Positions 22,148 through 63,345 of a stretch of 64,000 nucleotides of DNA are shown here, piece after piece. Position 1 is the stretch's first letter; each line of letters opens with the position of its first letter. The notes below the pieces were generated by a model that saw only the letters and a program-made list of their open reading frames with translations, was not told the DNA's origin and did not search any database. The DNA comes from Henckelia pumila (Eukaryota; Streptophyta; Magnoliopsida; Lamiales; Gesneriaceae), in NCBI RefSeq assembly GCF_033568475.1, contig NC_133123.1, positions 6,558,501 through 6,622,500 of the forward strand, given 5' to 3'. Made by a program: the position numbers and the translations under genes.

Positions 22148-22171
<24 letters not shown>

Positions 22172-22319
22172 GAGTTCTTTTATTGTGTCCAACACTACAT
22201 GCTCATTTTATGCCCACTTCATGCCCACTATGTACAATAGATGAGTTGACCGGTACAATAGATGAGTTGACTTGTACATGGTGGGCATGAAGTGGGCATA
22301 TAGTGTTGGGTACCATAAA

Positions 22320-22361
<42 letters not shown>
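22148..22361. mobile_element. TA-flanked hairpin element, family 2, copy 1
   Basis: (TA)n tracts at 22148-22171 and about 22325-22361 flank a 153-bp inverted repeat. The arms include TATGCCCACTTCATGCCCAC and GTGGGCATGAAGTGGGCATA. The loop segment ACAATAGATGAGTTGAC is present twice here but once in the sister copy at 35589. Confidence 0.8.
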
Positions 22362-22368
<7 letters not shown>

Positions 22369-22823
22369 TACGTATATACATATATCAAGTAACTTTCTGT
22401 TATATTTCCCAGTGGCGCACGTTTGACGTTACACACAATTGCCAGTGACAATAATAGAATATAATATTAATGTTTTTATATTTTTTTTGGGGAAAAAAAA
22501 TATAAAAAAAAAAGAGGATGAATTCCATAGCCTCAAATTAACGTGTGTAGCACACAGTCTGCAAGATGGTGTCACATTTCAAAGGAGTAACTGTCATGGG
22601 CCAACAAAGTTTATCTAATGTAATTGTGGGGACATTTTATACGATTATGGATCTTGGGACCATTTTCCCCAACATTAAATGACCCATTTGTTAGTACCTC
22701 AAAAAAGACACCAAAATATTTATTGCTGGACTGGAAATTTTTATTATTAAATGGGACCGATGGCTTCACGTTCCAAGATCCAAACTTTAGGTTTAGGATA
22801 TGTTTTTGAGTTTGAGGCTCAAT
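22362..22823. other. Intergenic, nothing recognised
   Basis: Short chance frames only. A-rich and T-rich runs lie near 22470-22515. Confidence 0.35.
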
Positions 22824-23152
22824 TGAAAATTGTTATTTTGATGTTGTTTGTTTGTCTTTTTGCAATTTTGGTCTTTTACGTTTTGATCAAATTTCATTTT
22901 TAGTTTGTTATTTTTGTTTGTTTTTTGTTTTTGTTTTTTTTCAATTTTAGTATTTTTTTTACTTGATCCTAACATGAACCAATACAATGCTGATGAGACG
23001 CTGATGTGTATAGTGTCACGTTAGTTTTTCTAACAAAAAAAGACTAAAATTATCAAAAATTAAAAAATTATAAGACTAAAAGTGAACTTTGATGACATAA
23101 TTGACCAAAATTGCAAAGTGATAATGACATGACCAAGATGCAGTTTTTCTTG
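22824..23152. mobile_element. Inverted-repeat MITE family A, copy 3
   Basis: Inverted ends (TTTTTGCAATTTTGGTC at left, complementary ACCAAAATTGCAAAGTG at right) and a central GATGAGACGCTGATGTG region. T-rich expansions have lengthened the left arm. Confidence 0.65.
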
Positions 23153-23765
23153 ATTTTTTTCATGGGCGATCGGATCAAATCAGATATCCGTTTTTCAAAA
23201 TTGACATACAAGATGGTCTTATAGGAGATTTTATGAAATTAAAATGGTTTCTAATTGTATTTAAATAAATATTATTGTACACTAATTAATATCTGCTCAT
23301 TTAAAGTCTTGAGTCCCCTTTGTGTCCAGCCTTCTTCCCCTTTAAATTTGATATTATTGAAAGAGGTCCCCCTCTTATAGGAACCCAAAAATCCAAAATG
23401 CTTGTCATCCAGTACCCCACCCTTTATCAATAATTGAAATTGAGATGGGTAAATATCAATTTACTTAGATTCCCTATTTGGTATTTGTGGAATTATGCTT
23501 AGTTTATTCTTCTTGAGCTCAAATAATTTGTTTTCTCAAAATATTATAATTTATTTGCAGAGTTTCTACGTTGAAGGATTTGATTTTTTTTCTTTGAAAA
23601 AGGAACCTTTTATAGATAAATCCATTCAATTTAATGAAATAATTTTTAATTTATTTACCACCTAAAATGTACTGCCCATCTCTAGGTTTAAGCTTTAAAT
23701 AGGACATTTAGCTCAGTGTTCCTAGCTGATTCCTCCATCATAATTGCATAGTTATACACAATTTT
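23153..23765. other. Intergenic, nothing recognised
   Basis: AT-rich sequence with no coding frame or clear transposon end. Confidence 0.35.
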
Positions 23766-24058
23766 TCGGTAGCGTTCGGGAGAGTTTCTAGGAATCATTT
23801 TTGATATTTTTCTTAACAAATTTTGTTAAGGAAAAACTGACAAGTGATTCATAAAAACTCTCCGAAACAATACCTTAATCGATTCCATCTATTTTTTGTC
23901 CCAATCTCGGAAGATATTCCATTGAAAAAAATTTGTAGACAATACTCTTTAAGGAAGTGTTTGCAACCTCTAAAAAAATGTTTATAGATTATTTCTTTAC
24001 AAATTTGTTAAAAAAGAAACCATAATTACTTATTTTTAGAGTTTGCAAACACTACTTA
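23766..24058. mobile_element. Two foldback MITEs of family B side by side
   Basis: The first (23766-23876) has arms AGCGTTCGGGAGAGTTTCT and AACTCTCCGAAACAATACC around AACAAATTTTGTTAAGG. The second (about 23948-24058) has arms AAGTGTTTGCAACCTCTAAA and TTTAGAGTTTGCAAACACTA. They are in the same class as 16399 and 58231. Confidence 0.6.
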
Positions 24059-24907
24059 CATTTTTTGTTCATTCACTACAGAGATACTTTACCCGTAGAA
24101 TGGTCGGAGCACTGAGACCGTTACCATGTTAATTTTTTTTTTTTGTTTTGGGAAAGAAACATTGTAACATAAATTATATTGGTCAGTTTTTGGACACTGC
24201 ATAGAATTAGTTATCATTTGACATCAATTAAATATTTAAATGCATTTTCAATGTAAATTGACAATTTTTTCTTAAAACAACGATGGAGTCATGGACCCGA
24301 AATTATTATCAATAAAACACGTTACAGGGACCCATCCTATAAACCCGAAGAGCGACAATGGGGGACACTGGTGTAAAGATAATGTGGGTGGGGCAATATG
24401 GAATATATTATATATCTTCAACGTTTTCAAATTTACATGTAAGTACTTATATATCAACTCATGCGATAGCTCGCGTGCATTGATTTTTTTACGTAATTAA
24501 TTATTATTATTTAATGTTTAAGTTATGGTTATGATTTTTTAAGATTTATTAAAATAGGTTCATATAATAATTTTCAATGGAATGAAAGAATTTGTATTAT
24601 TGTTCATTCATTATTAAATGATGAAGGTAATTACTCTAAAGAGTTGTCGCATTTTTTAAGAAAAATGTTACCAAAAATCGCAATAATATTTTATTGTTTT
24701 ATAGTTTTATACAACTCTATTTATTTAATTTTTATATTTTGTGGACATGCATTATAGTAGAGTTAGATTTTTCAATCTATACGGGCTAGAATTTTAAGTT
24801 CTCAAATCCTTTAATAATTTGAATCGAGTTACCCGAGCTAATATCAAATTAATTAAAAAATATTTAAAATTAATATAAATAATAAAAATAATTTGGTCCA
24901 TCTCGGA
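24059..24907. other. AT-rich intergenic DNA
   Basis: No gene recognised. Short frames near 24272-24500 have no family resemblance that I can see. Confidence 0.35.
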
Positions 24908-25057
24908 TATATATATATGAGAGTTGATATTTACACTCCATTTTGTGTTATCTACACTCCACTTTATGTGTAAAATATTTGTTCAATTTACTCATAAGTG
25001 AAGTGCAAATAACAAAAAATGGAGTGTAAATATCAACTCCCTATATATATATATATA
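24908..25057. mobile_element. TA-flanked hairpin element, family 3
   Basis: (TA)n at 24908-24918 and 25042-25057 flank a 123-bp inverted repeat. The arms are GAGTTGATATTTACACTCCA and TGGAGTGTAAATATCAACTC, perfect over 20 bp. Confidence 0.75.
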
Positions 25058-25243
25058 ATGTATGAATCCCTTAGAATAACCACATTGATCAAATTAATGG
25101 ATGTACAAAAATGTCTTTTGCTACTTATAACTACCATCTTTCAATTATATTTTTGAATTTTAATATATAAAAAAATGTTCATTATTTTTAGATATAATAT
25201 AAACTATTTATACACGTGAATTTTTGTGTACGTGGATTACTAG
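25058..25243 (+). mobile_element. Short dispersed repeat with Helitron-like 3' end, copy 1
   Basis: About 180 bp, repeated in opposite orientation at 62440-62615. Shared landmarks are TTAGAATAACCAC, CAAAAATGTC, ATTTTTAGATATAATATAA and CTATTTATACACG. Its right end has a hairpin-like CACGTGAATTTTTGTGTACGTG followed by TTACTAG and T, which suits a Helitron end. The other copy lacks CTAG, so the class remains open. Confidence 0.55.
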
Positions 25244-25387
25244 TATATATAAAGGGAGAACCCCTTTTAATAACTAATTTGGTGAAGCTTTTTATATTAT
25301 TCCAAAAACACCCTTACTTTTTCTTTATTTGAAATGTAAATATTTTTCTATTTGCGTACATGTCCTTACTTACCCAACGACTCAAAA

Positions 25388-25475
25388 AAAGAGGACAAGA
25401 GCCCTTGTACACATAAGAGTCGTTGGTAGACAAAGCAAAAGTAGCAAGAGTACGAGCCACTTGATTAGTAGTTAG
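25388..25475 (-). pseudogene. RNase H-like domain remnant, C-terminal piece
   Basis: The minus-strand reading includes NQVARTLATFALSTNDSYV, resembling the N-x-x-A-x-x-LA end of the RVT_3 RNase H fold of plant non-LTR elements and related host genes. It lies directly against the 5-bp duplication GTTAG of copia 2. Its partner piece is at 30216-30438, on the other side of the insertion. Confidence 0.5.
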
Positions 25476-25661
25476 TGTAGAAATTAAAGGAGAGAAAACT
25501 AGGTTTTTTATATCATGAAAAATTGTGTATAAAAGTTACACAACTAGATGTTTATATAGTTAGATTAAATACAAGCAAACAATAAAAAGACTACTCTATC
25601 CTTATTAGCTAATAAATAGAAAAAGCCTAATAATAATAACATAATCTAATATAATCTAACA
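25476..25661 (-). repeat. 3' LTR of copia 2
   Basis: 186 bp. It reads TGTTAGATTATATTAG at its minus-strand start and TTTCTACA at its end. It pairs with 30031-30215. Confidence 0.95.
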
Positions 25662-25689
25662 TCCCCCCTCAAACTCACGATGCTACAGC

Positions 25690-28600
25690 TAAAAGCATTG
25701 AGAGTTTGTCAGACAAAAAACGAAAGCGCGAAGCGGAATGTGCCTTGGTAAACATATCAGCAATCTGTAGAGAAGAAGGAACAAACGGCAACATGATGGT
25801 GCCAAGCTGAAGATGGTGACGAGTAATGTGACTATCAATTTCAATATGTTTCGTCCTCTAATGAAAGACTGAATTACGTGCAATTTGAATAGCACTCTGA
25901 TTATCACAAAATAACGGAGTAGGCCGAGCAAGAGAGACACCCATATCCGCAAGCAACCAACGCAACCAAACTATCTCACAAGTAGTAGAGGCCATGACAC
26001 GGTACTCAGCTTCTGTGGAAGATCTAGAAATAACATCTTGTTTCTTACTCTTCCAAGAGATTAGGGAATCACCGAGAAAAATGCAGAAGCCAGTGGTAGA
26101 TTTGCGATCCGTAGGATCACCAGCCCAATCAGCATCAGAGTACACGCAGCTCCAAAGATGAAGTAGAAGGAAATAAAAGACTTTGAAATTGAGTTCCCCG
26201 AAGATACCTGAGAATACGGAGAACAGCAGCCCAATGAAATTTAGTTGGTGCAGTGACAAACTGACTAACCACATGAACAACATGTGCAATATCTGGACGA
26301 GTCACGGTGAGATAAACCAAACTCCCAACAATAGTTCGGTAAAAACTAGGATCCGGCAAAGGTGGGCCATCACACAGTGAATACCGAGCATTAGTCTCAA
26401 GAGGAGTATCAGCAACTCTATTATCAGTGAGACGTGCACGCTCAAACAGATCAGATATATACTTTGAATGAGATAAGAGATAACCCTTTGGCGAAGAAGC
26501 GACCTCAATGCCCAGAAAGTAGCGTAGTATACCAAAATCTTTCATAGCAAAATAACAAGTCAACTCAAACTTCAAGGAAGCAATTCCATCAGAATCATCA
26601 CTAGTAATTATCATGTCATCAACATATAATGATAAGAGAATACGACCTGCACTAGTATATTTAACAAACAATGCTGAATCACGATTACTAGGCAGAAAAC
26701 CAAGCAAAGTGATAACTGTAGAGAACTTCTCAAACCAAGCATGAGGTGCTTGTTTAAGACCATAAAGTGCTTTACGAAGCCTGCAAACTTCACCAGGTTG
26801 GTGAGGAACACCAGGAGGAAGTGTCATATAAACTTCTTTATGCAGATCACCATTAAGAATTGCATTCTTGACATCCATCTGAGATATTCTCCATCGAAAA
26901 ATAGAAGCAACAACAATCAGAGTACGAACAATCGTCATTTTTGCAACAGGGGCAAATGTTTCCTCATAATCCATGCCATACTCCTGAGAATATCCTTTAG
27001 CAACAAGACGAGCTTTGTATCGTTCCATAGACCCATCAGATTTAGTTTTGATCTTATAGACCCAACGAGAACCAATTGTGTGTTTTCCTAGTGGCAGCGG
27101 TACCAAATCCCATGTATGAGTTTGATGCATAGCAGTCAATTCCTCAGCCATAGCATTCTGCCAAACAGGGTTACGAACAACTTCTCTATAGGATACAGGC
27201 TCAAATAGACAACGAACAGATGCAATAAATGAAGCAAAATAACGAGAATAGCAAGAGTAAGCAAAATCTGGTAGCTTAGAAGACTTACAAACACGAGTAG
27301 ACTGACGACAGCTAAAAGGATCATCCGCAACCTCAGGAGATGATTGGGTAGTGACAGAAGCAGGAGGAGGTGTTGCAGGTGTCTCAGTACCAGATTCGGT
27401 TGAGCTACCAGTATGGGCTGTTTGTAAAGCTTCTTCAGTATCAGTTTCGAAGGGATCAATGCAGAGAAGATCTGACTTTGTCATATTATGCGAACCAGCA
27501 GGAATAGAAAAGAATGAAATATGCTCAAGAAACATAACATGACGAGAAATATACAATTTTTGACTAACAGGATCATAGCAACGATATCTTTTTTGACCAA
27601 CACCATAACCCAAAAAAACACACAGAGCAGACCGAGGGGATAATTTATTACGCTCGGCATGTGGACGTAGGATGAAACAAGTACAATAAAAAACACGCAA
27701 AGATGAATAGTCAGGAGCATGCCCATATAATTTTTCAAAAGGTGACAAGCCTGAATTGTGTGAGGTTTGAATTCTATTAATCACGTGAGCAGCGGTAAGG
27801 ATTGCTTCCCCCCAAAAGGCACTAGGAACACTAGCAGACAATAAAAATGATCGAGCTGTTTCAACAAGATGCATATGTTTCCTTTCAGCTACACCATTTT
27901 GTTCAGGAGTATCCGTACAAGAGGTTTGATGAATAGTACCATCAGAAGCTAGTAAACGGGAAAAATCGGTCGAAGTGTATTCACCCCCCAAATCACAACG
28001 AAAGCACTTTATGACACTAGAATGTTGAGTTTTCACAAGAGCTCTAAAGTTATTAAAAATAGTAAGATAATCAGTCCTACGTTTCATAAGATAAACCCAA
28101 GAGTAACGAGTAAAATCATCAATAAATGAAACATAGTATCGTGACCCCCTTTTTTGTAAAAACAGGAGAGGGTCCCCACACATCATAATGAATAAGATCA
28201 AATGGGGCAGAAAAAAATGAAATACTTTTATTAAACGGTAAAGCAGAGAATTTAGCCAGTTTACAACCACTACAATAAGAAATATCAGAACTTTTGAAAG
28301 CTCATAAGACTCATGTAGAAGCTAAAAACTGCAAACGAGATGCTGAAACGTGACCTAAATGAGAATGCCACAAATAAAACTCAGAAGACAAACGACTAAA
28401 ACGAAAAGAAGATAAATCCACACTCGAAGCTGCAACATCTAGTACTTTGAGATAATCCAAGACATAGAGTCCTCCTTGCCTACGGCCTGTCCCAATCAGC
28501 CTCTGAGATTGCGGGTCCTGAACATAACAATTGGAGGAATAAAAGTAGACTAAGTATCCAAACTCACATAATTGACTAACAGAGAAAAGATTTAAACTGA

Positions 28601-29836
28601 GATTAGGAATATAGTAAACATTTGTAAGAGACAAACAAGAATTAACAATGGAACCAACACCTACTAATGGCATAGCAATACCATCAGCAGTTGCAACAGA
28701 TATAGATGAAATGGGAGTAAAAGAGACAAAGGAGGACAAGTGGGTGACATATGGTGGGAGGCACCAGAATCCAAGACCCACAAGGATGAGGGTATACCTG
28801 AAGGAGCAGACGACGACAAACCTATATGAGAGGAGACTGACATGGCAGATGGCTGGGCAGAGGACTGTGAAGCAAGGAATTGCTGAAACTGCTCAAACAG
28901 ATATGGATCCAAAGAGGGGGCAGCCACTGCATTACTGGACTGTGGTGGTCGATATGAAAACTGTTGTGGTTGAGTACCAGGTTTCCATGAAGCATTCTGA
29001 GGTAGCAAGGACGGCTGTTGAGGTCGTTGTTGCGGTGGTCGTTTCTGTTGCTGCGGCTGTGGTTTACCTTTGTTCAAAAATTGTGGACATTGTGACTTCC
29101 AATGTCCTTTTTCTTTGCAATAATCACACTCATCAGTAGAAATCTTCAAAGTAGACCGATTTTGGTTATGAGGCAGAGGGCGTTGTGGTGCGGCAAAAAC
29201 AGATGGCGTAGACGGGACAGGAGTCCCCTTATCAGCTTGAGACTTAAAGCGAATCTCCTCAGCAAGAAATTCATGTACCACCGAATCAACGGAAGGAAGA
29301 GGACTACGATGCAAGATTGTCCCATGCAATCCTTTAAAATCATCATGAAGAGCCATCAAAAATTGGACCACACATTTTTCTTTTCTATGAGTGACGTAAG
29401 CCGGGAATGCTTGCAATTCTGAAGATTCTGTGAGTGCCAACTGGTCCCATAGTTCGGACATGGCAGAATAAAAATCTTGGATGCCCATATCTCTCTGCCG
29501 AAGAGCGCGAATATCTGCTTCCAATTGATATTGTTTGGCAAATTTAGACTGTGTGTACAATTTTGACAGATGATCCCAAACTTGTTTGGCAGTCTCATAC
29601 TTGGCCAGCTGAGCACCAATGGAGTGTGTAACAGAATTATTGATCCACGTTATAATCTTCGCATTATCGGCCTCCCAAGTATCCAACGACTTTGCATAAT
29701 CAACAGCTTTGATGTCAGTAGGTTTAACACACACACCAGTAACATAACCCCACATAGATTTTCCCCGCAAGAAATTCTTCACAACATAGGCCCAATACGA
29801 ATAATTTTTTCCATCCAATTGGACACTACCAGCCAT
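25690..29836 (-). pseudogene. Copia 2 gag-pol polyprotein with few breaks
   Basis: The gag starts at 29836 (MAGSVQLDGKNYSYW). A CCHC knuckle (CDYCKEKGHWKSQC) lies near 29090-29130 and the protease motif WVLDSGASHHMS near 28770, where the frame shifts. The pre-integrase domain (LWHSHLGHVS) lies near 28350, followed by a stop. A further frame change lies near 28150-28170. Integrase then continues in a long open frame (FIDDFTRYSW, DTPEQNGVAERKH). Reverse transcriptase follows with QMDVKNAILNGDL and YVDD near 26615. The frame shifts near 26150 into RNase H (YSDADWAGDP, SSTEAEYRVMAS), and one stop follows NSVFH near 25858. About five lesions in total mean it is probably inactive. Confidence 0.95.
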
Positions 29837-30030
29837 GGTGACAACAAACAGTGTACACGGACAACCAAATAGGAAGCAGAAAACCAAGTTGATGTGAGAA
29901 CAAGAAAAAAAAAACTAATCAAAATACGAAGAGCGGAGAATAACTGGACCGACGGACGCACCCAGTGGACGAGATTAACAATCCTTCAATCAAACGATCG
30001 AAATCCATAGAGATGGAGGCTTTGATACCA

Positions 30031-30215
30031 TGTAGAAATTAAAGGAGAGAAAACTAGATTTTTTATATCATGAAAAATTGTTTATAAAAGTTACATAACA
30101 AGATGTTTATATAGTTAGATTAAATACAAGCAAATAATAAAAAGACTACTCTATCCTTATTAACTAATAAATAGAAAAGCCTAATAATAAATACATAATC
30201 TAATATAATCTAACA
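30031..30215 (-). repeat. 5' LTR of copia 2
   Basis: 185 bp with TG...CA ends. It is followed on the minus strand by the primer-binding site TGGTATCAAAGCC at 30030-30018. Confidence 0.95.
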
Positions 30216-30438
30216 GTTAGATCTCCTACAATGATGTACAATAAGCTCCGGATTTTTCAAGAGTGACGTGGTGAATAGATTGAACTAGATTCGTTTCTGC
30301 CGTTAATGGTGAAGAAACTTTATTGATGACAGAAACCACATTGATTGCATCTGTTTCTAAAAAAACCACGTTGTCACCCATTAAAGTCTTCCGTAATGAC
30401 CAAAAATTTTGCAAAATACAGTGAAAACATACCAACAA
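30216..30438 (-). pseudogene. RNase H-like domain remnant, N-terminal piece
   Basis: A minus-strand frame of about 70 residues contains VFLETDAINVVSVINK and LVQSIHHV. This fits the E-x-D-(A/S)-x-x-V-V-x-x-I pattern of the RVT_3 RNase H-like domain seen in plant LINE-derived and host RNase H-like proteins. With 25388-25475 it would form one domain with a frame change near the insertion point. It is a relic, and whether it came from a LINE or a host gene is unknown. Confidence 0.55.
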
Positions 30439-30826
30439 CGCAGCGAGTTGAAGAAAAAAAAAACAAGCTACCCTTGAGAATCACACACAACTACACTAAT
30501 CCCCAAAACACCCTTACTAACCATGTTAACATGCTTCAGTTTTCACCATCGACATTATTCCCACTTCTCTCCAAATATTTTTCCACTTTTCTTTGTAACC
30601 TTCATTGATTTTTAACTTCCCAATCTCCTCTCCACTATTTAAAGTCTATCCTCTACCCACCCTTGTTCATTTTTTGGAGACATTACACCAAATGATTTTT
30701 TATAATATTGTGTCATATTAGTTGTGTATCAAAATTAAATCGAATGTTATAAACAATAATTTATTACATATATCCAATAATTGATATATATGTGTATTAT
30801 ATTATGCACAAGCAATACATGTGTCC

Positions 30827-30972
30827 TACCACTAGCATATTATAAAACACGAGAGCCTTTAGATAACTACTTTTATGTCTTGATTCTTGATGTAACATTA
30901 TTTTTAAAATCTTTAAATTATTAAAAGTATTTTTTTTAATCTCTATCTATACATTTACATTTTTTAGATTAC

Positions 30973-31015
<43 letters not shown>

Positions 31016-32740: not shown

Positions 32741-32745
32741 ATACA

Positions 32746-33600: not shown

Positions 33601-33607
33601 GCTACCC

Positions 33608-35569: not shown

Positions 35570-35706
35570 GTATATATATATATATATAGTTCTTTTATGG
35601 TGCCTAACACTATATGCCCACTTCATGTCCACCATGTACAATAGATGAGTTGACTTGCACATGGTGGACATGAAGTGGACATATAGTGTTGGGCACCATA
35701 AAAGAA

Positions 35707-35761
<55 letters not shown>
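35570..35761. mobile_element. TA-flanked hairpin element, family 2, copy 2
   Basis: (TA)n at 35570-35588 and 35710-35761 flank a 121-bp near-perfect hairpin with arms of about 50 bp (AGTTCTTTTATGGTGCC and GGCACCATAAAAGAACT at the ends). Sister of 22148-22361 with a single central ACAATAGATGAGTTGAC. Confidence 0.85.
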
Positions 35762-35764
<3 letters not shown>

Positions 35765-35883
35765 CTTAAAACTCATTTGGAAACTCAACACAAATCGGTA
35801 GATGTTACATTGTATATATATATATATATATAATCTTAAAACTCATTTGGAAACTCAACACAAATCGGTAGATGTTACATTGT
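35761..35883. repeat. Exact 53-bp duplication separated by (TA)n
   Basis: The segment beginning TAATCTTAAAACTCATTTGG is at 35761-35813 and identically at 35831-35883, with a (TA)n tract between. It abuts the right TA tract of the preceding hairpin element. Confidence 0.95.
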
Positions 35884-43916: not shown

Positions 43917-45229
43917 CTATGCATCCCCATGTAAATTCCAAATATGTTCGATCAGGTTTTTTTGAAGATTGTGGTGCAATTCTCGGTTTCGAATACTGAC
44001 ATATCGTTCTAAAAAGGCGTTGAACTCTACAGTAGGATCTCTTGAAGGGACAACGTTTGGTGGCACATGTTCATCATCTCTAGTTGAAAAATCCTGATCT
44101 TCGAGTATATCCTCCCTTTCGTCCTCCACAATCATGTTATGTAGAATGATATATGTTTTCATTATATAATCTAGATCAATTGGATCCCACAAGCGAGATG
44201 AACCTCTCACTATATGCCAGCGTGCTTAGAGTACACCAAAAGCTCGCTCAACATCTTTTCTCCCCCCCTCTTGATATCGTGCAAAAATCCTATGTTTTTG
44301 CGAGAGGGGTCGAAGGATAGTTTTGACAAAGGCAGCCCAAGATGGATAAATACCGTCGGCGAGATAATATCCCATATTGTATTCATTCCCGTTCACCTCA
44401 AATTGAACTAGAGGGGCTTCTCCCTTTGCAAAATTTAAGAACAAGTTGGACCTCTCCAGTACGTTGATGTCGTTGTTGCATCCTGATACGCCGAAAAATG
44501 CATGCCATATCCATAAATCTTTTGATGCAACCGCTTGTAGTATGATTGAAGGTTTTTTTTGGTGTCCACTTTGATATTTTCCTGCCCAAGCTGCCGGACA
44601 ATTTTTCCAAACCCAATGCATGCAATCAATGCTTCCAAGCATCCCGGGAAATCCTCTTCTAGCATTTTCAGCATTTAGCTGAGCAACGTCCTCAGATGTT
44701 GGTTGCCTCAAATATTTTTCAGAAAATATCTCATGCATCCCCCTCAAAATGTTTTCAAACACTCCAGCGCTGTCGATGCACCTATCCTCAAATATTCATC
44801 AACAACATCGCCTTCAACATCATATGCAAGCATCCGAACAACAGCCGTAACCTTTTGTAGTTATGACAACCCGAGTTTATCGGTTGCGTCCCTCCGTTGG
44901 ACAAAGTAAGGCACATTGGTATGTAGAGCTTCCATAATTCTAAAAAACAAAGGTCTTCTAATACGAAATCGCCTTCGAAAATCATGCTCGCTGTAGACGG
45001 GACTGTCACCGAAGTAATCTTTAAATAATCTTCGAGCCCCGGCAACACGTTCTCGATTTTTTGATTTTCGTTTGTAGCCACGTACGCGACTTGACTCCCC
45101 CGATTGAAGCGTACAAACGTTCATTATTAATTTCTGGGTTATTGAACGCGGTGGAGAGATAAAGTCGTCCATCATCGGATCATGTGACATAATTTCATCA
45201 TCCGATGATGAAGAACTCATGTATGCCAT
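43917..45229 (-). pseudogene. PIF/Harbinger (HARBI1-like) DDE transposase with three lesions
   Basis: The transposase nicks and joins the element ends in the nucleus. The frame starts at 45229 (MAYMSSSSSDDE) and ends near 43917. Conserved blocks in order are RRRFRIRRPLFFRI, GSIDCMHWVWKNCP (first Asp), GCNNDINVL, YYLADGIYPSW (second Asp) and QEGGRKDVERAFGVL (Glu). All three DDE residues are visible. Lesions are a stop after KLGLS (44861-44863), a 1-base loss near 44750-44765 after ECLKTF, and a stop after FGVL (44225-44227). The first and third could each be a single base change. So few lesions suggest recent activity. It is related to the Plant_tran/DDE_Tnp_4 families. Confidence 0.92.
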
Positions 45230-45796
45230 GAAAAATATTGAAGATTTAGTGTGTGAATATGTTTAAACAAAGTGGAGAATGTGTAAAATGAAATGAAAAT
45301 GAGTATATTTATAAAAAATTTCATGGATTTTGAAAATTATGTCCGTTTGTACTTTTTCAAAATATTTTTAAAAAAATTCGATATTTTTAAAATTTTTTTT
45401 TGAATTATTAATAATTTTTATGAAAAAAATCATGCTGGAATTGATTTGGCCGTTGATCTTCAATGGCCAAATCATCCCAGTCCTTCTTTTTTTTTGTTTC
45501 ATTTTTCTTTTTTTTTTTAATAAAAGGGCCAGATTTTTCTGGCCCTTTAATTTTTTTTTATAATTGGTGGGCCCCACGTTAAAAAAAGTTTTTTTTTTTT
45601 AAAAAAAAAACAATAATGGTGGGGCCCACATGAAAAAAAATTAAAATAAATAAAAATGGGAGGGCTTGACCGCGCGGAGCCTCTTCGCGCGGGGCCCATC
45701 ACTTGATCGTATCCGCGTGCAATTTCCTCGCCTCTTGGAGGGGCGAGTGATGAGGGGGGCGACCCCAACTTGATCTCTCCCTTGGATATGCTCTTA

Positions 45797-46733: not shown

Positions 46734-47039
46734 TGATAAATTACAATTTTGATCATGTAAGTTTGTCATTTTACGATTTTGGTCATCTATGTTTTTAGAT
46801 TTTAGTTTTAGTCCTATGTTTCGATTTTTGGTAATTTTAGTTCTTTTTGTTAGAAAACATTTACTTGACATCATACACGTCAGCTCCACATCAGCACCAC
46901 ATTGGTATCATATCAGCGCCACATCGGAAAAATTAATAAAATTGCCAAAACAAAATAGCTTACTAAAACTGAAATCTGAAAACATAGAGGGCTGAAATCG
47001 CAAAGTGACAAACATATATGATAAAAAAACAATTTTCCA
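46734..47039. mobile_element. Inverted-repeat MITE family A, copy 6
   Basis: Well preserved. TTTGTCATTTTACGATTTTG is at the left, the complement CGCAAAGTGACAAAC is at the right, and CACGTCAGCTCCACATCAGC lies in the centre. Confidence 0.75.
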
Positions 47040-54411: not shown

Positions 54412-54691
54412 CTGGCATTTCTTTATTCATCAAAGTTTAAATTATGTGTCTATATATATATATATAATTTTGATTCCCTGCAAGAAACGTCTAGTCAATT
54501 TTTTTAACAAGTACTCCTGAAGTTTTTTTAAAAATTTAAATTTCTCATTTTCAATAAATTTTAGATTTTTTTTACATAAATTGAATTATCGAGAAAATCA
54601 AAGAGATAGGGGGTTAAAATAAGGGTATGTTGGGGATTCTAAAATTACACAATACATTGTTTGTCTTTATTATGACTTAAGTAATATACAA

Positions 54692-55005
54692 GGGAAAACT
54701 GCAAATTTGGTCTAATATGTTTGTCACTTTGCGATTTTGGTCTTCTTTGTTTTCATATTTCAGTTTTAGTCCTGCATGTTTCGATTTTTGGCAATTTCGG
54801 TCATTTTTATTCAAAAATGCTTACGTGGCACTGTACACGTCAGCTCCACATCAGCACTGAATTGGCGCTACGTCAGCGGCACGTCGGAAAAATGACTAAA
54901 ATTGCCAAAAAAATAAAGATAGTGGTTTAAAACTAAAATCTGAAAATATAAAGGACTGAAATCGAAAAGTGACAAACATACAGGACCAAAAAAACAATTT
55001 TCTCT
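54692..55005. mobile_element. Inverted-repeat MITE family A, copy 7
   Basis: Very similar to copy 1 throughout. GTTTGTCACTTTGCGATTTT is at the left, AGTGACAAACATACAGGAC is at the right, and CACGTCAGCTCCACATCAGC and TACGTCAGCGGCACGTC are in the middle. Confidence 0.78.
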
Positions 55006-55910
55006 ATATATAATATAGATCCCAAAGGTAACAAAATTAAATAGAAAAAGGGGGAAAACATTGTCAAAACAGAAGTTTGGACATGTATTTTAAAAACGTT
55101 TTTAGTGTTTTATAAGTGAAAAAAATTTAAAGTATGCGTTTGGATAAAATTTTTGTAAAATATTATTGAAAAATATTTTTTAAAAAGTGTTTTTCAAGTA
55201 TTGTTTTGAAAGAACACTTGAGAAGTGTTTTTAGATGCTTTTAGAATGGAACTATGGAAGGCGAAGAACAACATTACTTTCGAAATGTTAAAATGTTTTT
55301 TTAGAATAATTTTTCAAACACATATTTATTCTTAAAACAAATTTTAAAATATTAATTTATAAAATTGTTTTAAAAAACACTTTCATAAAAACAATATGTC
55401 TAAAGAGAACCTTATTCTATATTTTCCGTTGAATATTACATTAAACAAATTTCACTTACCAAGAACCACATGTAGGAAGTTTGAAAATAAATGAAGAAAT
55501 TAGCTGAAATTTGAGTAAATATCTGTCGTCTCGATCTAATATTTGGCCAAGAACTCAATCTCCTTTAAAGGGATATTACTAATTGTTATAGTAACCTCAA
55601 TTAATTGTTCTTGTATTTGAACTCACTCTCAAAGAAGACATATATTCAAGTATTCAATACCAACCAAGTTAAATATCGAGAATTCTTAAATTAATACAAG
55701 CAGCACAACATTTATATGTAACTTGGCTTCTTCGATATTGTTGTCTGTGTGGGCAATGCTTTGAACCATTCACCTGCTGCCTGCCACGTACGTAGGTTTA
55801 ATGTTTTTCTTTTTCCAAGCAAAATCTAGTGACCTAGCACATAAATGACATCAGGTGTGAATGATTAAGGGTATTGCATGCCCACACAATTAGCAGCATC
55901 TACAAAACGG
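55006..55910. other. Intergenic, possible decayed MITE
   Basis: 55125-55400 contains TGCGTTTGGATAAAATT and pairs of AAGTGTTTTT and AAAAACACTT words, suggesting an old foldback repeat without clear ends. No gene. Confidence 0.35.
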
Positions 55911-56003
55911 TTCAATCTATGCTGGCAGACGGCATCAACGGCCCGGATGATCCGGGCCATTGCTACCCCACTCGGGCACTGCTCGGGTGGGTAGCATAGA
56001 TTG
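55911..56003. mobile_element. GC-rich double-hairpin foldback element
   Basis: The outer arms TTCAATCTATGCT and AGCATAGATTGC pair. Inside lie two separate palindromes, GGCCCGGATGATCCGGGCC and ACCCCACTCGGGCACTGCTC with its complement GGGTGGGT. About 93 bp, strikingly GC-rich against its surroundings. Confidence 0.6.
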
Positions 56004-56608
56004 CTTCCTACAAAACCATGTTACTCTTGCAAAATTTATTATTAAAAAAACAAGGAAATGGGACAACACCTGATATGAAGATGTAGAATGATCAAAATAT
56101 GCATGAATTAAGCAAGCCCTAGCTAGACCAGAATTAGGCTTTGCTAGCTACTTGAGTTTGAGATCAGATAACAACATTGCAATAATGGAGTCCAAAAGGC
56201 CTCCTTCCTTTTCCCCCACTATAGATGCCCACTTTTAACCAAAAATAAAATAGAGTGACCATTCTCAAAGGGAACATCCTTCATGGGTTCAATAGAATAT
56301 GCATGGATCTACTCTTGCTCAACCACCTTTACAACTTTTTTTTTTATTTTTTCAATTTCTATTAATTCTTTTGGCATCTTTTAATAGCTTTCATTCACCA
56401 CTCAATGCCACCTTTTCCTCTGCAAAGTTTGCAAATACTAAATTCCTCCCCTTTTCTTTAATCCAACACATTCTCTCTCAGCATCAAAAGTAGTACGTTA
56501 CTTTATTTTTCCATCTCTGATCAATATCTCAACCTTCAAGTTGTTTGTGGTCGAAATTCGGTCCCCCGCCCTGATGCCGTCCTGTCATTAATCGCACTGT
56601 CTCAAGAA
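56004..56608. other. 3' flank of the IDD gene
   Basis: Probably includes the IDD 3' untranslated region on the minus strand. The C-rich, T-rich frame at 56299-56493 has no family resemblance. Confidence 0.4.
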
Positions 56609-58519
56609 TCATGTCCATCCGTTGATCGATGGTGGTTGACAGAGAGATTGCATCCCAACTCCAAGAAAATCCCTTGTTTCTCCCACTGAAATCTCCTCAT
56701 TCGTCGCGCGGTGGCGCTTCGAGGGGTACATTTGCGGCTGTTTCAAGGCAGAAAGGCCATTCTCCTCAGCACTCACAAGCTCACTACTTACTGAACTTGC
56801 GCCACACACTTGACCGAAGCTGTTTTCTTGAAGTGTAATAATACTGTCATTGGATTTGAACCCAAATTTTCCTAGGATGGAAGGATCCGTTGTAGTGGCC
56901 CCTATTTGAGCAGCTTTCTGCAGTAAAGCTGTAGCAGACATGGTCGCAGATGATGGCTGGTGACTTATAATTTGGTGTTGAGTACTAAACAAAGATTGAA
57001 CACTAACATCTTTAATGCCGGCGCTTGTACTTAAAGGGAGGGAGTGATCATTAATATTGGTTAAGTCTTGAGTTCCATTAATATTTGATGAAGTAACCTT
57101 GCTCCCGAAATCCCAATTCAAATGGTTAAAACTAGATATATGTGGAGGATTCGAGCACGGAATATTGGTGATGAGTGAATCATGGGTGCTGAAATTGTTG
57201 ATGGTTCCTAAACTCACATGGTTGATCATTCCCAAAGGATGCATATTTTCTTCAAGAATTTTGGGTGTGTAAGGTTGAGATTGGCCTGGATTTTGAGCCA
57301 TGTTGTTCCAAAGAGACAAGCCTCGTGATCTTATAATCGGGGTATTGGTATCGTTGCTCGAGATTGGCTTGAAAATTGGAGGGAAATTCTGTCCCATGCA
57401 TGGCGTTGGACCTAGCGATGAAGCGCCGATAAATTGGTAGTTCATATTTGGAGGTGCATGGGTCATGTTCATGTGAGAGGAGGCTGTAATTCTTGCTGTT
57501 TCTTCTGCTAAGGCATCACAAAATGCCCTATGAGTTATGAAGCTATCTCTCCTACACAAAACACAAAAATTAGACAAGAATTAATTAACTCTATGTTACG
57601 TTAGCTAGTAATATATATATATATATATGTATAATCAACTCGACGTAACAAACAATAAACTTAGATGTAAAAATGTGATTAATTAATGTAACCAATGAAA
57701 ATATATATGAAGCATGATACATGCAGCAAACAAAAAGAAATTAAAATCAAGAAGCTGTGCATGAAATGCATATATATACCTAGAAAAAATAGCCCCACAA
57801 TCACATTTGTATTCCCTAGTGCCACAAGTTTTGGAGTGAGCCTTCCAATCGGACTGAACGGCGTAACGTTTTTCGCACTTTTCGCACTTCCATTTCTTCT
57901 CACCATGCTTCCTGCAGAAGTGCTTCTTGATGCCTGTCAAATCTCCAAGAGCCCTCGAGGGATGATGGTGGACGCACGTCTTTTCGGGGCAAACGTACAC
58001 TCGCTTTCTCACACCTTCTTTGCTGCTCCTTTGCTTCAGCTTCCATGGAAGATTATGCCCTCTTCTGTGAAGTTGCAGATTTTGATCCCTCTGAAATCCT
58101 TTCCCACATATTTCACACAAGAATCTGTTGGTGGCCATCAGTGTCTTTGGTGATAAAGCTATCACTTCAGCTTCAGGATCTGTAAATAATTCAAACATAT
58201 CATTCATTCTTGAATATATATATATATATGGTAGTATTTGGAAGAGCTTGTAGGAAGCACTTATCAGCAGCTTCTTGTTAACAAAATTTCACAAAACTAT
58301 GAAAAACTGAGAAATGTTTCCTAAAAGCTTTCTCAAATACTCTCTGTATATGTCTATATAGTTGAGGAAGATGCATGATGATTATCAAGAAAACAAGCTG
58401 ATGAATATATAAATGGAAATATAACCTGGAGTTCCTGGAAGACTTCTCTTCTTCTTAGCTGAAGGAGGATTAGTGGATCCATGGATTTGATTTTGAGTGA
58501 AAATTTCATCATCTGCCAT
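56609..58519 (-). CDS. IDD: INDETERMINATE DOMAIN (IDD) C2H2 zinc-finger transcription factor, complete
   Basis: IDD proteins are plant nuclear regulators that bind TTTGTC-like sites and work with DELLA and GRAS factors in patterning, flowering, metabolism and gravitropism. Exons are 58519..58426, 58179..57780 and 57551..56609, with GT-AG borders and intact frame, giving 478 residues. The nuclear signal KKKRSLPGTP precedes the ID domain. The fingers are C53-x2-C56 ... H69/H73, C95/C100 ... H118/H123, C130/C133 ... H146/C150, and C157/C159 ... H172/C176. The last intron splits the codon for R165 inside finger four. The C-terminal region has the conserved MSATALLQKAAQIGA (about 369) and TRDFLG (about 457) motifs, which bind partners in known IDDs. 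The member within the family is not resolved. Confidence 0.95.
57552..57779 (-). other. Intron 2 of the IDD gene
   Basis: 228 bp, donor AG|GTATATATA and acceptor TGTGTAG. It holds a (TA)n tract near 57610-57628. Confidence 0.88.
58180..58425 (-). other. Intron 1 of the IDD gene, carrying a MITE
   Basis: 246 bp, donor CAG|GTTATA and acceptor TTTACAG. About 58231-58346 is a foldback MITE of family B. Confidence 0.85.
58231..58346. mobile_element. Foldback MITE family B, copy in IDD intron 1
   Basis: The arms GTAGTATTTGGAAGAGCTT and AAGCTTTCTCAAATACTC pair. The middle has TTGTTAACAAAATTTCAC. About 116 bp of the 246-bp intron is made of it. Confidence 0.65.
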
Positions 58520-61500
58520 CTTGTTTTTGAGGAGTGATCCAATCTTAATGATGAGTTTTTTTTTTTTTTTTTCCTTTCCCTTGAGAAAAGAGATAAAAGA
58601 TAGCTTTATAGTTGACTACTGATGCAGCTAGCTAGCGGAATTTGGAATAAGTTTCTCTCCTCTTAATTTCTCTGTCGATCTTTTGAGGATTTTCTTATGT
58701 TTAGGAGGTAAGCTAGAGTACAACCTTGGGGATATATGCAATTAGCGACTTATCATTAAGATTCAATTATTATTAATTACGTTTATTTATGCATCTCTTT
58801 CTCTCTCCCTCGTGTGTTACAGTGTTTTTAACTGCTTCTTGTCGGAATAGAATAACTTAAAATTATTTCCCCTATATATATATATATGTTGATGTAGGGT
58901 TATATAGGCTATGACTTAGGTTGTAATTTGAAATATATATATATTATATATAGTATGCTAGTTAAACTTTAAAAATTTTTATCGGTAAATCAAAAAATTG
59001 AATTAATATGGTAAACGTTGGATTTTTATTATTTATTTATTTTAGAAAAAAAAAAAAGGAACAAAAAGATGGTCCGATGGATTGATTAGTAGGAGATAGA
59101 GGCAGAAACTCAAAGTTCTAGAGAAAGTAAGACTCAAAATGCTTTCGTGCGAGATTGGAATGATTACCACATAATTGTTTTCCTTTTTCTTCACTTTGTC
59201 ATATTATTAATTATTATTAATGTACTATAACTTTTATCCCAATTAATTACCAATATATATAGAGAGAGAGAGAGAGACCGGCCCCACAACTTGTTTTTGC
59301 TCCATGAAGAGTGAAGACGACATTTGATAGAGAGAGAGAGATGAAATTCATTTTCTTTTTTACTTTTGACTGTGAATTCATATTCTTGAATTTGAAGTAG
59401 TTACCACTAATTTATTTTAGCTTGCGATACGATAAAGTTTTTAACTTTAAATTAAAGTTGATCAACTAGTTGGATTATCAAAAGGTAATGGATTAGGGTG
59501 CATGGATTTAATTAATTAATTTTTCACGAGTTTTTTAAGTACAATATTGTAATTCTTGATCACGACTTCACAAATAAATTTCAGAATTTTTAATTAAACC
59601 CCTATAAAAATATTCAGATCCAGTGGATTGAGGGGATCAATCTAATCGATTCACCTCTATTTTAATGAAACGTCACAATTTCAAAATATTCTTTAAAAAA
59701 ATCGAAATTTCAAATAAATAAATAATATTTATACGAAAAGGTAATTTCACCACATTCAGGTAGTACATCATCTTCGTAATTAATTAATTTCCCAGCTGTA
59801 AGTCTCGGTTACGCATTTATTCCATGAATTTATATATAATCGTCCGATCATCTAGAAATATTCGAGTTGATGAAGTAAGTGGCGCTTGACATGTGATCAG
59901 AAGTTTGTTTTTACTTACCAACATCTTATCGAATGAGCAGCTTTTCACATAGCTAGTTTGTAGATTATTGCATGCTCGTTGCCACTTTTTTATTAAAAAA
60001 TAAAAAATCTTGCTAACCATATTATTTAATTAGTAAAAATTGCGTGCATGTGGAGAGATATTATTCATATCCATGCACGTGCCACACTGTGAAACAAACA
60101 AGTAAATCCAAAGGAAACGACAACAAAATTAGCATTAAAAGGGAATAATCGTCCTAATCTCATAAGATGTTTACTTCAATTTCGATCATTTTTTTTTACT
60201 GAAAACTTTAAATTAAATTATAAAAGTTAACTCGAATTACGTACTATTTCTTTAAATCAATTATATATTCTAAAGGGACATTAATAAGAACTATCTTCAA
60301 GGCAAGTGTAAAATAGAAAAGAATTCCAAATAGTCTAAAATTTCGAAACCACGATTATTTAAAAATCATAAATGAAATTGAAATATTTTTATTTAAAAAA
60401 AATATTAGGCCTATATATAATATACACAGTCTAATATTGCATATGTGTGATGCACCAATAGGTCGATCGTTCAATGTTGGATTGGGAAATATCTGTAAAA
60501 TTTATATCAGATATGTGTAAAATGTGTGTAATTTTAACAATTGAGTTTATATATATAAAAGAAATCCCAGTCGGTAGATGATAGGATATATGAAATTGAT
60601 GGGTTGATTGATTTTTGGTTGATTCTTTTATGCTTTTCAAAAAGTCATTTTAAAGCAATCTTTTTCTTTAGGGAAATGTATTGGAATTCAACTTCTGACT
60701 TTTCTTCTTCCACATGCATATACACATCTTGTGGATCTAATGGAACTCAAGTGCTTCCAAGTTTTTAATCACATTAGCTTGACAATGAAATGTTCATCAA
60801 TTAGCTCAAAAAAATCCAAATATAATCATAGTTAACAAATTATATTCTACAAAAACAATATATACTTTGTTTATCCCAAATATATAGACAACACAAATTA
60901 AAAAAATTATAGGAAAAAACAAATGTTACAAACAAACTTCAATTTTTTTTTTATCTCTAATTAATTCATTTTAAAAATAGTAGTATGTTTTCCAAAACTT
61001 AGTTAATATGAATATACTAATAAGAAAAACAAGTAGAAAAAAGTTATCATAAATATAAAAAAATGAATTATATATTTGGTCCGACCCGAAATATTTAATT
61101 TCCTCGAATTTTTTACGCGAACTTTTATTTTTGGGCCCTATTCAAAAAATTTTGAATCGACAATCTGATGAAAGATGGTCGTGCATGGTGTTACCTAGTT
61201 GTCATTTACAATTTTTTAATACTAAAACGACACAATTAATTAGGTTACAGAAATTAATTAGTTAATTAATATAAGCAACTGGGAAATGCAGTGAATTTTT
61301 TGAAGTGGGAGTGGTCGTCTCCTTGTGGGCTGACCTTTCTTGATGACAATTAATCATAATCTAATGATGTTTGTGCTTTTTGTGTTTATTTATAATTTAA
61401 GCTTTGGAGTTTAGTTGTTGAACTTTGGTGACCCAAGAATATTCTTGCTCCCAAAGGCTTCAACTTTCAAGGTCCAGCTCTTCTTTCCCATGTATTAATA

Positions 61501-62216
61501 TTCTTGAATCACGGTGATCTACAAGATCTCTCCCTTATAATATTCTTTATAATAATGTTATAATTTTTGCTAAAGTTTGTGTGCTTATATATATTTATTA
61601 TTATGATCAATATTTGTGCATGTTAGGAGTACTTACCTTAGAAATATATATGTTCATGACAATGAAACAAAACCTAGTTTATCGATCACTTATATTTCAT
61701 TTGACATGAATATATCAAGTTTGAGACGAAATTTCGAGTATGAAACCTACTTTCAAAATATCTGAACATAATCATAGACGAATTTGATAAGAGTTAAATA
61801 ATAACAAAAATAATAAAAAGAAAGGGTTCATATATCAAGACCCATGCACCCACCAATATGGGTAATCATAAAATATAGTATAGTAATTAGGAGTTGTGAA
61901 AATATTCAAATGAGTGTATTTTTAGGGAAAAGTAAATAGTTGTCACTTAGGGTATGTTTGTTTTCTTTGGTTGTCTTTTGCCCAGCTGATCCCATGTAAT
62001 AGGAAATATTTTTTTCCCCCTAATTTCAAAAACTGATCAACTTTTGTCTTCAGCCTTGTATTCAACTGTTTTGGACCCTTTTGTTTCATATTTCAATTTT
62101 TTTTTTTTTTTTGAGCAAATCATATTTCATTTCACTTTTTAATTTTTTTTAATATACGGCCTATTTACTGGATATGCTTATCATCATGCTTCCCGAGAAT
62201 TTGGAACGGAAACAAT
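58520..62216. other. Upstream and intergenic DNA right of the IDD gene, no gene seen
   Basis: About 3.7 kb, AT-rich. It has a CT-run near 58550-58580 and 58797-58812, (GA)n at 59260-59276 and 59330-59341, and short (TA)n tracts near 58875 and 58935. Short frames show no family resemblance. The first few hundred bases presumably hold the IDD leader and promoter. Confidence 0.4.
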
Positions 62217-62426
62217 TTATATATATATATATAGTCATGATCCACTGCACACCAATGTTGTGCAGGGATTTTGTGTGCACCGCAGGATGTTCGCGCGAAC
62301 ATCTAAAAAAAAAATCAGATGTTCGCGAGAACATCTCAGATGTTCACGCGAACATCACAGGGTGCACACAAAATCCCTGCACACTGGTGTGCAGGGGAAC
62401 AAGATTATATATATATATATATATAA
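62217..62426. mobile_element. TA-flanked hairpin element, family 4, with triple palindrome core
   Basis: (TA)n at 62217-62233 and 62404-62426 flank ~170 bp. The outer arms include GCAGGGATTTTGTGTGCACC and GGTGCACACAAAATCCCTGC. The core holds three copies of the palindrome GATGTTCGCGCGAACATC or close variants. Confidence 0.8.
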
Positions 62427-62439
62427 ATTATGATTCACG

Positions 62440-62615
62440 CACGCAAAAATTCGCGTGTATAAATAGTTTATATTATATTATATCTAAAAATAATGAAAAT
62501 ATTTTATATTTTTAAATTGAAAAATAAAATTAAAATATGACAGTTATAAGTTGTAAGAGACATTTTTGTCAATCCACTAATTTGACCAAGGTGGTTATTC
62601 TAAAGGGTTCATCCA
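62440..62615 (-). mobile_element. Short dispersed repeat, copy 2 (inverse of 25058-25243)
   Basis: On the minus strand it reads TTTAGAATAACCACCTTGG, CAAAAATGTCTC, ATTTTTAGATATAATATAA, CTATTTATACACGCGAA and GCGTGCGTG in the same order as the copy at 25 kb. Similarity is about 80% by eye. Confidence 0.6.
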
Positions 62616-62773
62616 TTATTATATTGTAAAAATGTGTGTGTATGTGTATATGTGTGTATGTATGTCTGTCGGTGTATGTATGTATGTTTTTTTTGGAATA
62701 AATTAAAGTATATATGTTTTTATTACGTATTTTGGGTAAATACAACATGCATTGATGAATGATGATGATGTGC

Positions 62774-62776
<3 letters not shown>

Positions 62777-62831
<55 letters not shown>

Positions 62832-62998
62832 GATCATCTGTATTCTAGTGGTACAGGGTTTTTCGTGTGCGACCACTAAAATCCGATTTAGTGTTTTTTT
62901 TTTTTACATTAAAACATGGTACCGGATTTTAGTAGTCGCACACGAAAAAACCTACACCCTAGGACGCAGATGATCAAAATTTATATATATATATATAT
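62777..62998. mobile_element. TA-flanked hairpin element, family 1, copy 2
   Basis: (TA)n at 62777-62826 and 62982-62998 flank ~156 bp. The arms are TTTTGATCATCTG and CAGATGATCAAAA, and inner arms are TTTTTCGTGTGCGACCACTA and the TAGTAGTCGCACACGAAAAA complement. It shares ACCGGATTTTAGT-GTCG with the nested element at 10957. Confidence 0.8.
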
Positions 62999-63010
62999 CG
63001 ATCGACTTAT

Positions 63011-63180
63011 GATATCAATTCATTTGAAGATTTTTTTAAATTCAGCTGACAATATAAGGGATCCACGATCATCAATTGATTGATCTATATATAAAATCAT
63101 TTTTTGATATCAATTCATTCGAAAAGTACTATTCAAATATTTCAGTTGATAATATAAAGGATCGACGATCATCAATTGAT
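63011..63180. repeat. Tandem ~73-bp duplication
   Basis: Units start GATATCAATTCATT(T/C)GAA and end ACGATCATCAATTGAT at 63011-63080 and 63106-63180, a period of 95 bp, with minor differences. Confidence 0.85.
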
Positions 63181-63187
63181 CATTATC

Positions 63188-63345
63188 ATATATATATATA
63201 TAGAGTTTTGATCACATGGGCAACCACCATGAGCAACCACGTGAGCAACAACTTACGTGACAATCACTCATTGAATGTCCAAGATGCCACGTTAGTTGTT
63301 GCTCACGTAATTGCTCATGGTGGTTCACATGTATATATTTATAGA
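63188..63345. mobile_element. TA-flanked hairpin element, family 5
   Basis: (TA)n at 63188-63202 and a weaker GTATATATTTATA on the right flank ~129 bp. The arms are CCACCATGAGCAACCACGTG, then AGCAACAACT, and the complementary AGTTGTTGCTCACGT, then TTGCTCATGGTGG. Confidence 0.7.

What the first reader, a model, noticed from the sequence alone, without database searches (positions are those of the whole stretch)
22148..63345. Several unrelated hairpin elements each sit between two (TA)n tracts
Seven hairpins (10957, 22148, 24908, 35570, 62217, 62777, 63188) fall into about five sequence families, and each has (TA)n on both sides. Micron elements of rice are known to insert in TA microsatellites. 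Here families with different arms share the same target rule, which suggests one mobilising machinery that recognises TA repeats more than arm sequence. Alternatively TA tracts could be part of the element ends and expand after insertion.
Basis: partly seen in the sequence, partly recalled or inferred. Interest (0 to 1): 0.72.

Follow-up and report, generated by a model that had tools for sequence, protein, structure and literature searches.

The report
Plant mini-transposons sitting in TA repeats
Seven small hairpin-shaped jumping-gene remnants in this plant DNA sit in runs of TATATA because they look like an already described kind of mini-transposon (Mutator-like) that prefers such runs, and most of the families here share the same end sequence.

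Summary
Seven hairpins lie in TA tracts as reported, but one has a degenerate right tract, and they form six families. In sampled genomic copies (20 of about 40 scored per family; 43 end pairs for A), families A-E usually sit in (TA)n. Family F usually does not: 13 of 20 copies have no TA flank, and exact 9-bp target duplications are common.

Copies of C, D and F outside TA carry 9-10 bp duplications, so TA is the target, not part of the element. These are short non-autonomous Mutator-like elements of the published microsatellite-inserting kind (Micron, MuTAnT, SaTar, MiM, Ac-mMITE).

'Unrelated' is wrong: A-E and two neighbouring families share a ~22-bp end. A matrix built without a family still ranks that family's best end 1st to 7th of ~128,000 positions for A, B, D, E; 107th for C.

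Parity inside TA tracts fits 10-bp insertion in B-E (50 of 55 even) and 9 bp in F (3 of 3 odd, two independent sites); A is mixed, and inherited flanks are not excluded. Tracts change length after insertion.

No autonomous partner and no complete empty site were found. New member of a known kind.

The parts
10957..11196 (.). TA tract 10957-10970, hairpin of family E 10971-11134 (right end lacks about 10 bp of its terminal repeat), TA tract 11135-11196
   Evidence: 20 other genomic copies: 16 TA on both sides, 3 on one, 1 none
22148..22361 (.). TA tract 22148-22171, hairpin of family A (copy A1) 22172-22324, TA tract 22325-22361
   Evidence: genome search; flanks
24907..25057 (.). TA tract 24907-24918, hairpin of family F 24919-25041, TA tract 25042-25057
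   Evidence: 20 other copies, 13 without TA, many with 9-bp duplications
35571..35762 (.). TA tract 35571-35588, hairpin of family A (copy A2) 35589-35709, TA tract 35710-35762
62218..62425 (.). TA tract, hairpin of family B 62234-62405 (element ends by comparison at 62232 and 62407), TA tract
62777..62998 (.). TA tract, hairpin of family C 62827-62981, TA tract
63188..63343 (.). TA tract 63188-63202, hairpin of family D 63203-63331 (right end shortened compared with other D copies), degenerate tract TATATATTTATA 63332-63343
63086..63093 (.). (TA)4 at the equivalent point of a tandem unit that has no D insertion (half of a related empty site)
   Evidence: 80% alignment of 63007-63093 with 63102-63196
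25049..25251 (.). unit T, joined to F by a TA tract; inverted copy at 62420-62624 joined to B by a TA tract
   Evidence: 83% over 208 bp

Best explanation
The hairpins are short non-autonomous Mutator-like (MULE) elements of the microsatellite-inserting kind. Shown: A-E sit mostly in (TA)n; copies of C and D outside TA have 10-bp duplications and F 9-bp ones; A, B, C, D, E and two neighbour families (G, H) share a ~22-bp end, consensus close to GAGTTTTGATCACCTGCCCACC. Inferred: a MULE transposase lineage in the genome binds that shared end, whatever arms lie behind it. It cuts target DNA with a 10-bp stagger (sometimes 9 in A), preferring TATATATATA in one register, and inserts the element. 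Repeated insertion into the flanking TA tracts builds arrays joined by TA, and slippage then lengthens or shortens the tracts. F is probably moved by a related but distinct MULE with a 9-bp stagger and a general AT-rich target.
For: Window enrichment. Flanks, TA on both / one / neither side: A 37/4/2 of 43 end pairs (looser criterion; loci L049 and L050 gave no readable pair); B 17/3/0 of 20; C 9/5/3 of 20 with 3 unreadable; D 13/5/2 of 20; E 16/3/1 of 20; F 3/4/13 of 20. Duplications outside TA: C, 3 of 3 such copies have exact 10 bp (L071, L074, L086); D, 1 of 2 has 10 bp with one mismatch (L146); F, exact 9 bp in 8 of 17 copies not TA on both sides; A, L047 has 9 bp (my reading). Parity inside TA tracts: even in 17/17 B, 8/9 C, 11/13 D, 14/16 E; odd in 3/3 F. 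Shared ends: 13.9 of 22 identical on average versus 5.6 for shuffles; leave-one-out matrix ranks the best end of E 1st, A 5th, B 6th, D 7th, C 107th in the window. TA-joined arrays. Tract length change between paralogues. MULE transposase domains are abundant: 1188 candidates, 150 scored, all 150 over the cut-off.
Against: No autonomous element with these ends was found: 8.0-8.5 kb around 3 of the 150 scored MULE domains shows no TA-flanked pair of matching ends. Family A has mixed parity (7 even, 5 odd of 12 readable), and one non-TA copy (L055) shows no duplication by my reading. The only non-TA E copy (L169) and one of two non-TA D copies (L145) show none. One-sided B copies match poorly: L090 and L103 over 8 bp with one mismatch, L094 not at all. 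The single register (46 of 50 even cases) could come from flanks carried along with the element. Many E and A ends have lost terminal bases, so their parity rests on fixed spacing. Control: 0 of 10 TA-tract sides in 50 kb of arbitrary genome stretches carry the end motif, so most TA tracts have no such element. No complete empty site was read.
Confidence: 0.85

Rival explanations
1. Circles of the element with TA filler between the ends integrate into TA tracts by homologous recombination (the model proposed for SaTars in PMC5907723). TA flanks and register are then inherited from the circle.
For: One register dominates (46 of 50 even cases counted); one-sided copies often lack a good duplication; family A has mixed parity; the paper reports flanks that do not fit simple duplication.
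Against: Non-TA copies of C, D and F have ordinary 10- or 9-bp duplications. Parity in TA tracts agrees with the duplication size of the family (B-E even 50 of 55, F odd 3 of 3), which the circle model does not predict. Both registers occur in B (L106), C (L078) and E (L155, L159). L073 has an exact 10-bp duplication that includes non-alternating bases.
Confidence: 0.15
2. The TA tracts are part of the element ends and move with it.
For: TA on both sides in most copies of A, B, D and E; inverted symmetry of most junctions.
Against: Copies without any TA have duplications directly at the ends (L071, L074, L086, L146; many F copies). Tract lengths differ between the two sides and between paralogues.
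Confidence: 0.04
3. Chance or assembly effect: hairpins near common TA microsatellites.
For: TA tracts are common in this genome (249,654 overlapping 16-mer hits per strand).
Against: 0.0016 expected for both sides against 6 of 17, while 10 other hairpins have none; replicated in 100 sampled copies of families B-F with a strong difference between families.
Confidence: 0.01
4. Stowaway-like (Tc1/mariner) MITEs with TA target duplications whose TA expanded later.
For: A TA dinucleotide at both ends would fit a 2-bp TA duplication.
Against: 9-10 bp duplications in C, D and F copies outside TA tracts; the ends do not look like the Stowaway terminal repeat (recalled, not searched).
Confidence: 0.03

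Closest known systems
SaTar elements of guayule, rice, sorghum, citrus (PMC5907723)
   Same: Several short families with different bodies, flanked by (TA)n, joined in non-nested arrays, minority copies with 9-10 bp duplications, assigned to MULEs.
   Different: Elements here are smaller (121-172 bp between the tracts, nearly all hairpin, against 233-1900 bp there). A shared 22-bp end across seven families is shown here; in the paper some family ends match autonomous MULEs. No autonomous partner found here.
MuTAnT of Medicago (PMC4486113)
   Same: Foldback structure, TA targeting, variable loss of terminal G bases, 9-bp duplications in non-TA copies; tracts longer in occupied than in empty sites there.
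   Different: One family with an autonomous partner; terminal sequence only marginally similar to these (best 9 of 16, P 0.05).
Ac-mMITEs of pineapple (PMC8449440)
   Same: TA-flanked and 9/10-bp-duplication copies within one family; two families share terminal sequence; GA...TC ends; clusters; no autonomous partner found there either.
   Different: Two families, 210-570 bp.
MiMs of carrot (PMC8227079, citing Chen et al.)
   Same: 15 families in TA stretches; three have related putative autonomous Mutator elements; how they reach TA repeats is stated to be unclear.
   Different: Poorly conserved terminal repeats reported there; strong near-palindromes here.
Micron of rice (Akagi et al. 2001; not read, described in PMC5907723)
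   Same: Targets (TA)n; later assigned to MULEs as rSaTar2.
   Different: About 380 bp; sequence not compared here.

Membership tests
Microsatellite-inserting non-autonomous MULEs (SaTar / MiM / MuTAnT kind) | Short repeated non-coding elements with terminal inverted repeats | tested here: met
   155-943 first-look candidates per family, 40 scored each
Microsatellite-inserting non-autonomous MULEs (SaTar / MiM / MuTAnT kind) | Most copies inside (TA)n tracts | tested here: met
   Met for A, B, D, E; C has both sides in 9 and one side in 5 of 17 readable copies; F not met
Microsatellite-inserting non-autonomous MULEs (SaTar / MiM / MuTAnT kind) | 8-11 bp target duplications in copies outside microsatellites | tested here: met
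   C 3 of 3, D 1 of 2 (one mismatch), F 8 of 17 exact 9 bp; A one of two by my reading; E 0 of 1; B has no non-TA copy in the sample
Microsatellite-inserting non-autonomous MULEs (SaTar / MiM / MuTAnT kind) | Arrays of different families joined by TA | tested here: met
   L067 (A-TA-C-TA-E), L072, L082, L096, L142 and others. Absence of nesting was not surveyed
Microsatellite-inserting non-autonomous MULEs (SaTar / MiM / MuTAnT kind) | Terminal similarity to an autonomous MULE in the same genome | tested here: inconclusive
   MULE domains abundant, but only 3 of 150 scored loci were read, 8.0-8.5 kb each, and none had matching TA-flanked ends
Microsatellite-inserting non-autonomous MULEs (SaTar / MiM / MuTAnT kind) | Empty sites show one uninterrupted TA tract | tested here: inconclusive
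   Half-site only at 63086-63093; the joined-flank search for E did not complete
MuTAnT family proper | Terminal sequence as printed in PMC4486113 | tested here: inconclusive
   best 9 of 16, P 0.05 against shuffles
Stowaway / Tc1-mariner MITEs | 2-bp TA target duplication | tested here: not met
   9-10 bp duplications in C, D and F
Micron (rice) | Sequence similarity to Micron | not tested
   The Micron sequence was not at hand

The most novel reading that the evidence does not exclude
One MULE transposase lineage moves at least seven families that share only a ~22-bp end. It has an intrinsic, register-specific preference for the 10-bp target TATATATATA, so TA-tract insertion is ordinary 10-bp staggered integration and not recombination of circles. 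The parity of TA tracts can then be used as a read-out of duplication size in any genome.
Probability: 0.45. Interest if true: 0.5.

Novelty: new member of a known kind. Interest (0 to 1): 0.3.

Why it matters
How these elements reach TA repeats is stated to be unclear in PMC8227079, and PMC5907723 proposes recombination of circles. If parity and register hold up on a full genome count, the simple answer is a MULE transposase with a sequence-specific target, and the many 'unrelated' families are one end-sharing lineage. Insertions of this kind are polymorphic in Medicago and pineapple (PMC4486113, PMC8449440), so they could also serve as markers.

Tried and rejected
Viral contigs: an 18-base motif of family A matched 8 IMG/VR contigs, but only 18-19 bases of A align there; treated as chance. 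Three MULE loci were read for matching ends: L175 and L176 have none; L177 has a family-G-like half element beside a TA tract and a motif hit away from TA, not a pair of ends. Tandem neighbours were fetched in the hope of empty sites: both outer units next to the B array are also occupied; the predicted neighbours of the A and F pairs gave no match to the references used, which did not include the flanks of the F pair at C2:182.9 Mb. F was tested for the shared end: weak (P 0.014 over shifts). Comparison with the MuTAnT end is marginal. A GAG count at tract edges (5 of 14 against 1 of 30) was superseded. Control stretches: 0 of 10 tract sides in 50 kb and 0 of 22 (overlapping) in three further loci carry the motif, against 4 of 60 in the window by that narrow pattern. 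A paper search for three strings from family C ends found nothing.
Full report
OBSERVATION. The window (64 kb, mostly AT-rich) lies at C4:6558501-6622500 of an unnamed 884.7-Mb genome in 133 contigs. Its genes (BIRD-IDD zinc finger, DUF679 protein, LRR kinase, copia-type polyprotein, Plant_tran transposase) point to a plant. Among 61 TA tracts of 8 bp or more, six pairs enclose strong inverted repeats; the seventh hairpin, D, has a broken right tract. Of 17 hairpins that I selected, 6 have tracts on both sides, 1 on one side and 10 on neither; random placement gives 0.0016 for both sides.

FAMILIES. There are six: A (22148, 35570), B (62217), C (62777), D (63188), E (10957), F (24908). Apart from A1/A2, the bodies show no alignment to each other beyond a 29-bp match of C and E (86%); other hits of E there are A/T-rich stretches elsewhere.

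GENOME-WIDE FLANKS. Each family was searched in the whole genome. Only the best 40 candidates are scored, so samples favour close copies (candidates: A 770, B 195, C 155, D 288, E 943, F 343). For B-F I fetched 20 of about 40 scored places each, mostly from the top, skipping a few adjacent or duplicate ones. TA tracts (four units within 16 bp) on both / one / neither side, window copies not counted: B 17/3/0, C 9/5/3 with 3 unreadable, D 13/5/2, E 16/3/1, F 3/4/13. For A, with a looser criterion (three units within 40 bp outside the inner core), 37/4/2 of 43 end pairs; a few lie in one locus, one is from the window, repeated places were merged, and L049 and L050 gave no pair. So five families follow the TA rule and F does not, although its window copy does. 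Some sampled copies are the same insertion in duplicated DNA (L095/L101, L117/L122, L020/L023).

TARGET DUPLICATIONS. C copies outside TA: ATGGTCGAAT (L086), TTACATAGAT (L074) and TTTCTCCCCA (L071), all exact 10 bp; L073 shows TATATATAAA at a tract edge. D: L146, 10 bp with one mismatch; L145 none. F: exact 9-bp duplications in 8 of 17 copies that are not TA on both sides; two more are exact over 8 bp, five have one mismatch over 8-10 bp, two have none. A: L047 reads as 9 bp (GTTATCTTT), one L051 element as 10 bp, L055 none (my reading). E: the one non-TA copy has none. These sizes are those of MULEs, and they show that the elements do not carry TA as part of their ends.

PARITY TEST. In a pure TA tract the duplication cannot be read, but its parity can. 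An even duplication leaves different bases on the two sides (A and T); an odd one leaves the same base. Copies with TA on both sides: even in 17/17 B, 8/9 C, 11/13 D, 14/16 E (50 of 55); odd in 3/3 F. From these counts the chance that all three F cases are odd is 56/30856 (0.002). L117 and L122 are one insertion, so F has two independent sites and the figure is about 0.013; B likewise loses one (L095/L101). This matches 10-bp duplications in C and D and 9-bp in F. Family A is mixed (7 even, 5 odd of 12 with both ends readable). Terminal bases are often lost in A and E, so parity there rests on fixed spacing from inner sequence. Of the 50 even cases, 46 have the register TATATATATA and 4 ATATATATAT (counted). 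This is either a target preference or inheritance of flanks; the latter is not excluded.

SHARED ENDS. The terminal 22 bases of A, B, C, D, E and two neighbour families are 13.9 of 22 identical on average, against 5.6 for shuffles. The neighbours were seen joined by TA in fetched loci: G and H. With a matrix from all seven, the seven best hits in the window on both strands are all TA-adjacent ends of these elements, which is partly circular because the window copies helped to build it. With each family left out in turn, its best end ranks E 1, A 5 (other A ends 10 and 16), B 6, D 7, C 107 (other C end 673) of about 128,000 positions. The shortened right ends of D and E were not ranked. F is only weakly similar (P 0.014). 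In 50 kb of arbitrary stretches, 0 of 10 tract sides carry the motif, so most TA tracts are ordinary.

ARRAYS AND TRACT DYNAMICS. Neighbouring families are joined end to end by TA (A-C-E in L067, E-D in L142, B beside H in L096 and beside a G-like end in L102). In the window, F and B are each joined to copies of a unit T. Paralogous copies of a single insertion have different tract lengths: 31/16 against 23/22 in the B array (L147, L106), and on one side of A about 12 by eye (L020) against 28 (L023). So tracts change after insertion. A tandem unit lacking D has (TA)4 where the unit with D has a 15-bp tract, which fits insertion into a short tract followed by growth.

AUTONOMOUS PARTNER. MULE domains are abundant (1188 candidates, 150 scored, all 150 over the cut-off). 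I read 8.0-8.5 kb around three of them; none has a pair of matching TA-flanked ends, but longer elements would have ends outside. The partner remains unidentified.

PRIOR ART. The phenomenon is in print. I read parts 1-2 of 4 of PMC4486113 (MuTAnT, main text up to the reference list), parts 1-4 of 6 of PMC5907723 (SaTar: 15 guayule and 5 rice families, unoccupied TA sites in indica for 20 of 51 chromosome-1 rSaTar2 sites, Micron assigned to MULEs, circle model), parts 1-3 of 6 of PMC8449440 (pineapple) and passages of PMC8227079 (carrot). Akagi et al. 2001 (Micron) and the maize TAFT paper were not read.

VERDICT. New families of a known kind. What may be new is the parity and register evidence and the leave-one-out demonstration that different families share one end. 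I did not see either in what I read (searches), but supplements and most subscription papers were not available. Shared terminal sequence between two families is already reported in pineapple.

Noticed in passing
window 35743-35883: Perfect 70-bp tandem duplication that includes a TA tract, directly beside A2; part of the right flank is also repeated beside B in L147 and L148.
   Followed up: partly
G000:C2:128.00-128.05 Mb (L106, L147, L148): Five family B copies at about 13.3-kb spacing; flanks match in the three that were read, so probably a tandem array.
   Followed up: partly
window 1761-2071, 54682-55015, 46738-47038, 17002-17292, 22825-23124: A dispersed ~310-bp repeat family (68-87% identity); the three copies tested (1761, 46738, 54682) have no TA flanks.
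   Followed up: no
window 44226-45262, minus strand: Plant_tran (PIF/Harbinger-like, recalled) transposase domain at 44226-44795; neighbouring open frames up to 45262 gave no Pfam match or were not tested.
   Followed up: no
L029, L127, L130, L131: GA/CT repeats between element ends and TA tracts, as reported in pineapple, probably slippage from the GAG...CTC ends.
   Followed up: no
L041, L058 (C2:74908461-74908679): Two family A elements fused without a TA tract between them.
   Followed up: no
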